Positions 37,588-39,433 of a stretch of DNA of 64,000 nucleotides are shown here, piece by piece. The number at the start of each line of letters is the position of its first letter. Positions within the stretch are counted from its first letter, which is position 1. Under the pieces are notes generated by a model. That model was not told the origin of the DNA and did not search any database. It saw only the letters and a program-made list of their open reading frames with translations. Made by a program: the position numbers and the translations under genes. The stretch comes from Pseudomonadota bacterium. GTDB lineage: Bacteria > Pseudomonadota > Gammaproteobacteria > Acidiferrobacterales > Acidiferrobacteraceae. The DNA lies in the NCBI GenBank assembly GCA_021777535.1, contig JAJYDN010000009.1:1-64000 (forward strand), written 5' to 3'.

Positions 37588-37663
<76 letters not shown>

Positions 37664-37765: not shown

Positions 37766-39148
37766 ATGCGGATTCTTCTCGCCAGCCCCTACGAGATCGG
37801 ACGGCAACCTTTCGCGCTCGCGCATCCGGCCGCGGTCTTGCGGCAAGCCGGACATGATGTGCGCTGCGTGGACTTGAGCCTCGGTGCCCTGCCGTGGGAC
37901 AACCTCGCCGAATTCGGTCTGATCGCGGTCAGCGTCGTCATGCACACGGCGACACGCATCGCGGCCCGCCTGCTGCCGCGCATCCGTGAGCACGCGCCGG
38001 CGGCCCGCATCGTCTGCTACGGCCTCTACGGCCCGGCGCACACGGCGGCGCTCACCGCACTCGGCGCCGACACCGTCCTGGGCCCCGAATGCGAGGACGC
38101 GCTGCTCGATTTCGCCGGTGACGTGGAAGGCCGCCCCCCGGAAGAGCCCGCCGCGCGCGCGACCTTCGTCGTGCCCGACCGGCGCGATCTGCCGGACCTC
38201 AGGCGCTACGCGCAGCTGATCGGGCCGGGCGATGCGCGCAAGACGGTGGCCTTCGCGGAGACCACACGGGGCTGCAAGCATCTGTGCCGCCACTGCCCGG
38301 TGGTGCCGGTTTATCGCGGACGCTTCCGGGCGCTGCCGCGCGATGTCGTGTTGGCGGACATCCATCAGCAGATCGAGCGGGGCGCGACGCATGTATCGTT
38401 TGGGGATTCCGACTTTTTGAACGGCCCCGCCCACGCAGTGCGCATCGCCGGGGCCTTGCACGAACAATGGCCCCATGTGACGTTCGACGCGACCATCAAG
38501 ATCTCGCACATCTGCCAGCACCCGGACATCATCCGCCGGCTCGCGGCCTGCGGCTGCGTGCTCATCACGAGTGCGGTCGAATCGTTCGACGACGCCGTGC
38601 TTGCGCATCTCGCCAAAGGTCATACGGCGGCCGATACGTTTGCGGCGGCGGCCATCGTCCGGGAGGCCGGCGTCAGCCTCTTGCCCACGTTCGTGCCGTT
38701 CACGCCCTGGACGACGCTGGATGGCTATCGCGAGCTGCTTTTGTCTATCAGGGACCTGGGCTGGGTGGATACGGTGGCACCGATCCAGCTCGCGATCCGC
38801 CTGCTCGTGCCCGCGGGCTCCCATTTGCTCGACCTGCCCGGGTTCGGGCGCCACCTCGGCGCGTTCGCAGCCGAACAGTTCGGCTTTCCCTGGGTGCACG
38901 AGGATCCCCGCGTGGACGCCCTGCAAAGGGCCGTGCAACGGCGCGTGGAGGAGGCGGACGAGAAAAAGGAGACGCGCCGCGATACGTTCGGCGCCTTGTG
39001 GGCGCTTGCGCACGGCGCGTGCGGGCTCGCGGTGCCGCCGCTCGCCTGTCCGGACGCGGCGCTACCCGCCTTCCGGCTCTCGGAGCCCTGGTATTGTTGT
39101 GCGGAGCCGACGACGGCGCAGCTTGCGGTCGCCGACGCGTCGGCCTAG
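37766..39148 (+). CDS. CCAEP-tail B12-binding radical SAM protein
   Basis: A 460-residue protein. The N-terminal third (MRILLASPYEIGRQPFALAH ... LGPECEDALLDFAGD) resembles a B12-binding Rossmann domain. The radical SAM core has TTRGCKHLCRHCP with Cys170, Cys174 and Cys177 for the 4Fe-4S cluster, then GDSDFLN and ATIKISHIC. The C-terminus has LSEPWYCCAEP, Cys444-Cys445-Ala-Glu-Pro, the mark of the CUAEP/CCAEP-tail radical SAM (seleno)protein family, in which the first or second Cys is selenocysteine in some genomes. Here both codons are TGT. The substrate is unknown. It appears to be monocistronic, between tRNA-Phe and convergent yggX. Confidence 0.85.
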   Translation: MRILLASPYEIGRQPFALAHPAAVLRQAGHDVRCVDLSLGALPWDNLAEFGLIAVSVVMHTATRIAARLLPRIREHAPAARIVCYGLYGPAHTAALTALGADTVLGPECEDALLDFAGDVEGRPPEEPAARATFVVPDRRDLPDLRRYAQLIGPGDARKTVAFAETTRGCKHLCRHCPVVPVYRGRFRALPRDVVLADIHQQIERGATHVSFGDSDFLNGPAHAVRIAGALHEQWPHVTFDATIKISHICQHPDIIRRLAACGCVLITSAVESFDDAVLAHLAKGHTAADTFAAAAIVREAGVSLLPTFVPFTPWTTLDGYRELLLSIRDLGWVDTVAPIQLAIRLLVPAGSHLLDLPGFGRHLGAFAAEQFGFPWVHEDPRVDALQRAVQRRVEEADEKKETRRDTFGALWALAHGACGLAVPPLACPDAALPAFRLSEPWYCCAEPTTAQLAVADASA

Positions 39149-39157
39149 CGCCGACAG

Positions 39158-39433
39158 CTACCCGTTTGCCGGGGGGACGTAGCCTTCGGGGGCGCTGGAG
39201 CCTGCGCCGAAAAGGAAATTCTCCATCTCCTTTTCCAGGAACTTGCGCGCCTTGGGGTCCATCGGCGTGAGACGGTATTCATTGATGAGCATCGTCTGGT
39301 GGCTCATCCACTGCTGCCACGCTTCCTTCGATATCTCTTTGTAGATCCGTTTGCCGAGCTCGCCCGGATAGGGGGGGTAGTCGAGTCCCTCTGCTTCGCG
39401 TTTGAGTTTGGCGCAGACGATGGTGCGGCTCAT
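39158..39433 (-). CDS. yggX: Fe(2+)-trafficking protein YggX
   Basis: A 91-residue YggX/UPF0269 protein: [33 protein letters not shown] with Cys7, then [18 protein letters not shown], and [19 protein letters not shown]. YggX protects Fe-S clusters from oxidative damage. It is coupled by a 4-nt overlap to mutY, as in E. coli, where MutY itself needs an Fe-S cluster. Only 9 bp separate it from the convergent CCAEP radical SAM gene. Confidence 0.96.

What the first reader, a model, noticed from the sequence alone, without database searches (positions are those of the whole stretch)
37766..39148. CCAEP-tail B12 radical SAM protein, Cys version of a selenoprotein family
The C-terminal Cys444-Cys445-Ala-Glu-Pro matches the CUAEP/CCAEP tail, with TGT codons at both positions, and the cluster motif Cys170-x3-Cys174-x2-Cys177 is intact. 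The family's reaction and substrate are undescribed as far as I know. The gene stands alone between tRNA-Phe and yggX, which gives no pathway hint.
Basis: partly seen in the sequence, partly recalled or inferred. Interest (0 to 1): 0.6.

Follow-up and report, generated by a model that had tools for sequence, protein, structure and literature searches.

The report
CCAEP-tail radical SAM enzyme, ArsL relative
This gene encodes a real but functionally undescribed radical enzyme whose nearest studied relative makes an arsenic-containing antibiotic amino acid, and its relatives in other bacteria often sit beside a gene that joins amino acids together, which gives a first concrete idea of what it might do.

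Summary
Window 37766-39148 (+) encodes a 460-aa radical SAM protein matching NCBIfam NF040546 (CUAEP/CCAEP-tail) at 561 bits, cut-off 500. Cys170-x3-Cys174-x2-Cys177 and Cys444-Cys445-Ala-Glu-Pro (TGT TGT) are present. A Sec form exists: Thermomicrobium roseum has TGA at the second position. Two points of the reading need change. (1) "B12" is unsupported: the Pfam B12 domain is below cut-off, and 0 of 18 genomes of this bacterial family have CobS or the MetH B12 domain. (2) "No pathway hint" is too pessimistic. The second-best family is ArsL, the arsinothricin radical SAM enzyme, whose tail Cys-Cys aligns with this one. Relatives in five families lie beside an ATP-grasp L-amino-acid ligase, present in 19 of 23 class genomes with the enzyme and 47 of 346 without. 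Most likely mechanism (inferred): ArsL-like transfer of SAM's 3-amino-3-carboxypropyl group to a soft acceptor held by the CC/CU arm, the amino-acid product going to the ligase. The acceptor is unknown; arsenic is possible, but this genome has no arsM hit. New member of a known, uncharacterised family.

The parts
37766..39148 (+). CCAEP-tail radical SAM gene, 460 aa
   Evidence: NF040546 561 bits, cut-off 500; Pfam Radical_SAM 51.4 bits, cut-off 29.5
37766..38137 (+). N-terminal Rossmann/flavodoxin-like domain (residues 1-124), the 'B12-binding-like' part
   Evidence: single-sequence model, ten-residue blocks over 1-120 at pLDDT 71-92 with one at 55; structural matches over 1-124; Pfam B12-binding 19.6 bits, below the cut-off of 32.1
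38273..38296 (+). CX3CX2C (Cys170, Cys174, Cys177), presumed ligands of the 4Fe-4S cluster
   Evidence: sequence; invariant in 17 aligned proteins including two ArsL
39095..39109 (+). CCAEP tail motif, TGT TGT GCG GAG CCG; Cys445 is the Sec position of the T. roseum form
37588..37663 (-). tRNA-Phe(gaa) upstream; a synteny shared by relatives in the order, not seen at the class-level loci scanned
39158..39433 (-). yggX (Fe(II) trafficking/oxidative damage protection), convergent, the mutY-linked copy
   Evidence: ORF; the cluster's Pfam Iron_traffic assignment rests on homologue L082; synteny

Best explanation
Shown: a Cys-form member of the CUAEP/CCAEP radical SAM family, sister to ArsL, with a Rossmann-like N-terminal domain, one CX3CX2C site and a conserved C-terminal Cys-Cys (Cys-Sec) arm. 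[quoted passage not shown] The CC/CU arm holds a soft, thiophilic acceptor (As(III) is the precedent; another metalloid or a chalcogen is possible). The product is an alpha-amino acid. In relatives, and possibly here through a ligase encoded elsewhere in the genome (G000:C4:20722-22014), an ATP-grasp L-amino-acid ligase then joins it to another amino acid. B12 is probably not used.
For: Second-best NCBIfam match is ArsL NF040542, 233 bits, far above the next (48 bits). The CC pair aligns with the RCCLKC tail, and 55 columns are invariant across 15 CUAEP-type and 2 ArsL proteins. ArsL converts As(III) to hydroxyarsinothricin in E. coli, and an ACP transfer is proposed (PMC8552651, Discussion and passages); PMC12159101 (passages) cites later work for ACP radical transfer to arsenic. 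Ligase genes are adjacent in 9 of the 41 loci that I judged, in five families and several gene orders. Co-occurrence: 19 of 23 against 47 of 346 class genomes; all 14 families with the enzyme also have the ligase. The ligase profile fits the solved L-amino-acid ligase BL00235, E 5.9e-59. Against B12.
Against: ArsL shares only about 30% identity, and the score is under ArsL's cut-off (233 of 450). The C-terminal alignment spans a stretch of about 50 residues that ArsL lacks. arsM is absent from this genome at E<=1e-40, and only 3 of 30 genomes with the enzyme have it over cut-off. The ligase also occurs in 23 of 66 relatives and 47 of 346 class genomes without the enzyme, and is missing in 6 of 30 and 4 of 23 with it. 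In the window's own genome the two genes are on different contigs. T. roseum's megaplasmid gave no ligase hit. No chemistry was tested.
Confidence: 0.42

Rival explanations
1. A cobalamin-dependent radical SAM enzyme (methylase or similar), as the first reader's B12 label implies, with B12 imported.
For: N-terminal Rossmann domain whose structural matches include cobalamin-binding domains; weak Pfam B12-binding match; weak matches to B12 radical SAM families such as TIGR04295 and HpnR.
Against: Pfam match below cut-off. Receiver domains and flavodoxins match the domain equally well. No CobS or MetH B12 domain in 18 of 18 family genomes; 25 of 30 genomes with the enzyme lack CobS. The best solved-structure match by sequence is AprD4, which as I recall has the domain without needing B12. 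B12 uptake and other B12 enzymes were not searched.
Confidence: 0.2
2. The CC/CU tail is a redox relay or a ligand of a second Fe-S cluster rather than an arm that holds the acceptor; the enzyme does ordinary 5'-deoxyadenosyl chemistry (oxidation, dehydration or epimerisation).
For: AprD4 diol dehydratase is the best solved relative. Sec next to Cys is common in redox sites (recalled). HesB/IscA-like Fe-S carrier and YggX-like genes lie in the linked module.
Against: The closest other family is ArsL by a wide margin, and it too ends in a Cys-Cys tail. No further invariant Cys outside CX3CX2C and the tail would complete a second cluster.
Confidence: 0.23
3. The enzyme acts after the ligase: it modifies a dipeptide or small peptide made by the ligase, rather than making an amino acid for it.
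For: The ligase is more widespread than the enzyme (66 against 23 of 369 genomes), as expected if the enzyme is an accessory step on an existing product.
Against: Four of 23 class genomes with the enzyme lack the ligase at the threshold used.
Confidence: 0.15

Closest known systems
NF040546 rSAM_CUAEP (CUAEP/CCAEP-tail radical SAM (seleno)protein)
   Same: Full-length match over cut-off, CX3CX2C, tail motif
   Different: Cys instead of Sec in the tail; the family itself has no described reaction in the papers searched
ArsL (NF040542), arsinothricin biosynthesis radical SAM enzyme
   Same: Whole-length homology, CX3CX2C, C-terminal Cys-Cys that aligns
   Different: 233 bits against a cut-off of 450; tail CCAEP after an extra stretch of about 50 residues instead of terminal RCCLKC; no arsM hit in the genome and no arsQ-arsL-arsM type arrangement (compare)
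AprD4 (PDB 6fd2), radical SAM diol dehydratase
   Same: Best solved-structure relative: profile E 1.6e-9 over residues 166-341 and top Foldseek row
   Different: Only the radical SAM core aligns by sequence; the CC tail is outside the aligned part
BL00235 L-amino-acid ligase (PDB 3vot), for the linked ligase
   Same: ATP-grasp plus LAL_C2 domain in the linked ligase; profile match E 5.9e-59
   Different: Substrate of the linked ligase unknown

Membership tests
NF040546 CUAEP/CCAEP radical SAM | Score over the curated cut-off of 500 bits | tested here: met
   561 bits, residues 3-454 of 460 against profile 1-467 of 468
NF040546 CUAEP/CCAEP radical SAM | C-[CU]-A-E-P tail | tested here: met
   Cys444-Cys445-Ala-Glu-Pro; W[YF]CCAEP in 47 of 55 frames examined, the other 8 accounted for
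NF040546 CUAEP/CCAEP radical SAM | CX3CX2C cluster motif | tested here: met
Selenoprotein (Sec form) | In-frame TGA at the second tail position and Sec machinery | tested here: not met
   Codon is TGT; no SelB over cut-off in 18 of 18 genomes of the family; the sub-threshold hits ring in all 14 control genomes too, only 2 of them over cut-off
ArsL (NF040542) | Score over the curated cut-off of 450 bits | tested here: not met
   232.9 bits
ArsL (NF040542) | C-terminal RCCLKC tail | tested here: not met
   CCAEP followed by 12 residues; only the CC pair aligns
ArsL pathway | arsM in the genome | tested here: not met
   No NF008823 hit at E<=1e-40 in G000; 3 of 30 genomes with the enzyme have one over cut-off
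B12-dependent radical SAM | N-terminal B12-binding domain over the Pfam cut-off | tested here: not met
   19.6 bits, cut-off 32.1
B12-dependent radical SAM | Rossmann/flavodoxin-like N-terminal fold | tested here: inconclusive
   Modelled without alignment; cobalamin domains, receiver domains and flavodoxins all match
B12-dependent radical SAM | Binds cobalamin and needs it for turnover | not testable with these tools
   Indirect evidence against: 0 of 18 genomes with CobS or MetH B12 domain
ACP-radical (non-canonical) radical SAM | SAM cleaved to methylthioadenosine and an ACP product | not testable with these tools
   Inferred from ArsL kinship only

The most novel reading that the evidence does not exclude
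The family is a second, non-arsinothricin route to carbon-metalloid (or carbon-chalcogen) bonds: a Cys-Sec/Cys-Cys arm presents the soft atom to an ACP radical, and a dedicated L-amino-acid ligase turns the resulting amino acid into a dipeptide-type metabolite, made without B12 and without ArsM in Gammaproteobacteria-like relatives of this organism.
Probability: 0.18. Interest if true: 0.85.

Novelty: new member of a known kind. Interest (0 to 1): 0.5.

Why it matters
The family is named but has no described reaction in the papers searched. Tying it to ArsL and to an amino-acid ligase replaces 'unknown' with one testable chemistry (methylthioadenosine against 5'-deoxyadenosine from SAM) and a short list of acceptors. 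If right, it would add to the few enzymes known to make carbon-metalloid bonds and might explain why one lineage places selenocysteine in the tail.

Tried and rejected
Read the conserved tRNA-Phe neighbour as a substrate hint (ACP on a tRNA): rejected. tRNA-Phe is in 20 of the 23 loci of the same order that were scanned but in 0 of the 20 class-level loci.

Searched phages (no match) and viral contigs (no relative). The single scan of genome contigs gave one distant fragment, 29% identity. A Bacillota sample gave 0 of 299; the tool warned that nothing rang anywhere, so absence is not shown.

Looked for a SECIS-like hairpin after the T. roseum TGA: stems form, but no better than shuffles (z -1.22), so it is not used as evidence.

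Tested arsM as a partner: no association. Single-sequence AlphaFold2 gave mean pLDDT 52; only residues 1-124 are used, and the place of the tail relative to the cluster could not be judged. Other repeated neighbours (dienelactone hydrolase, ABC transporter, amino-acid permease, exonucleases, 5'-nucleotidase) are confined to few families and were not pursued.

Full report
Observation. The reading frame 37766-39148 (+) gives a 460-residue protein. The radical SAM motif Cys170-x3-Cys174-x2-Cys177 and the tail Trp-Tyr-Cys444-Cys445-Ala-Glu-Pro are exact, and codons 444-445 are TGT TGT. It scores 561 bits against NCBIfam NF040546 (cut-off 500), E 1.9e-168, over nearly its whole length, so the tail match is not chance. 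tRNA-Phe lies upstream on the other strand, and yggX converges nine bases after the stop.

Family in related genomes. With an E-value limit of 1e-40, 30 of 96 relatives have a match and 27 are over the cut-off. In the class sample 23 of 369 are over the cut-off, in the phylum sample 1 of 398, and in a Bacillota sample 0 of 299 reach 1e-60. In the window's own bacterial family the gene is in 15 of 18 genomes and keeps its place before yggX-mutY-asmA (names of mutY and asmA are mine from the frames): an old resident gene, not a recent arrival. W[YF]CCAEP is in 47 of 55 frames examined, and the other eight are accounted for under the observation check. The only Sec form found is on the Thermomicrobium roseum megaplasmid, where the codon order is Cys-TGA-Ala-Glu-Pro and the profile scores 778 bits with one TGA inside. 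The window's family has no SelB over cut-off in 18 of 18 genomes, so this is a true Cys form.

Kinship. After its own family the next match is ArsL (NF040542, 233 bits); the third is 48 bits. In plasmid records 1 of 17 matches is this family (T. roseum, 44% identity) and 16 are RCCLKC-tail/ArsL proteins at about 28-31%. In alignment A1 (15 CUAEP-type, 2 ArsL) the cluster cysteines, Asp-x-Asp-Phe-x-Asn, Pro-Trp, Arg-Leu and the two tail cysteines are among 55 invariant columns. The tail alignment jumps a stretch of about 50 residues that ArsL lacks, so the CC correspondence is plausible, not proven. ArsL in E. coli converts As(III) to hydroxyarsinothricin, and its discoverers propose transfer of SAM's 3-amino-3-carboxypropyl group to arsenic (PMC8552651: Discussion read, other passages seen). 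A 2025 review cites a 2024 J Am Chem Soc paper for that radical transfer (PMC12159101, passages); I saw that paper only as a citation.

B12. The Pfam B12-binding match is 19.6 bits against a cut-off of 32.1. A single-sequence model (mean pLDDT 52) is usable only for residues 1-124, an alternating strand-helix domain that matches receiver domains, flavodoxins and cobalamin-binding domains alike. CobS is absent from 18 of 18 genomes of the window's family and from 25 of 30 genomes with the enzyme, and the MetH B12 domain from 18 of 18. The PMC8552651 text has no occurrence of 'cobalamin', 'B12' or 'vitamin'. Uptake of B12 was not searched. I read the domain as B12-like in fold and probably B12-free.

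Pathway link. Clustering of frames around the gene showed a recurring neighbour: an ATP-grasp protein with the L-amino-acid ligase C-terminal domain LAL_C2, whose profile matches the solved ligase BL00235 (E 5.9e-59) and BacD. It is adjacent in 9 of the 41 loci that I judged, in five bacterial families and in different orders: enzyme then ligase with overlapping stop-to-stop frames (G428, G465, G769); enzyme after a YggX-like gene and divergent from a HesB/IscA-like gene plus ligase (four genomes of family f94; the HesB gene was called in one of the four); enzyme then YggX-like gene converging on ligase plus HesB (two genomes of f180). On the tree linked and unlinked loci need four changes, at least two forced by well-supported branches. 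Genome-wide, the ligase (E<=1e-80) is in 19 of 23 class genomes with the enzyme and 47 of 346 without (Fisher p 3e-12, not corrected for kinship; it takes the two class draws of 369 as the same set); all 14 families with the enzyme also have the ligase, of 40 families with the ligase. In the nearer relatives (E<=1e-25) it is 24 of 30 against 23 of 66. The window's genome has it at G000:C4:20722-22014, in a YggX-like/HesB-like/ligase module. Against the link: the ligase often occurs without the enzyme, sometimes the reverse, and in the window's family the two are apart.

ArsL parallel. In Alicyclobacillus acidocaldarius an ATP-grasp gene, a transporter, arsM and the RCCLKC-tail gene are neighbours; that ATP-grasp is only 22% identical to the first row of A2, so the parallel is one of kind. 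arsM itself does not travel with the CUAEP enzyme: 3 of 30 genomes over cut-off, none in the window's genome. The pathway is therefore probably not arsinothricin.

Mechanism. Steps shown: family, motif, tail, kinship, ligase linkage. Steps inferred: non-canonical SAM cleavage, ACP radical, the tail as the arm that holds a soft acceptor, an amino-acid product, and its use by the ligase. Arsenic is the precedent acceptor; nothing here singles it out. The mercury-binding C-terminal Cys-Cys of MerA is a recalled analogy.

Novelty. The family and its name exist in NCBIfam. Searches of the held papers for the tail names gave none, and passages of two selenoprotein reviews name other radical SAM selenoproteins, while searches within the newer one for this family's accession and tail names gave none (PMC9312934; PMC13188914). 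A link to an amino-acid ligase was not seen in the listings, which searched words, not meaning.

Noticed in passing
G000:C4:14722-28014 (L133) and L134-L147: A conserved module of a second YggX-like gene, a HesB/IscA-like Fe-S protein and an ATP-grasp L-amino-acid ligase, in several genomes beside era-recO-pdxJ-acpS, present with or without the CUAEP enzyme; its product is unknown.
   Followed up: partly
L146:3843-4931 (G485); a homologue beside the ligase in L147 (G483): In two genomes without the CUAEP enzyme the ligase is followed by a different radical SAM protein; the G485 one matches AmmeMemoRadiSam TIGR04337 over cut-off.
   Followed up: no
L089-L096, L098, L099 (downstream of the enzyme): A dienelactone-hydrolase-family gene lies directly downstream of the enzyme in ten of the window family's loci but not in the window itself.
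   Followed up: no
G465:C17:84407-85204 and G463:C126:945-1607: arsM-type matches with one in-frame TGA, possibly Sec-containing arsenite methyltransferases or broken genes.
   Followed up: no
G616:C46 and G616:C94: One class genome holds two matches to the CUAEP family, one of them partial.
   Followed up: no
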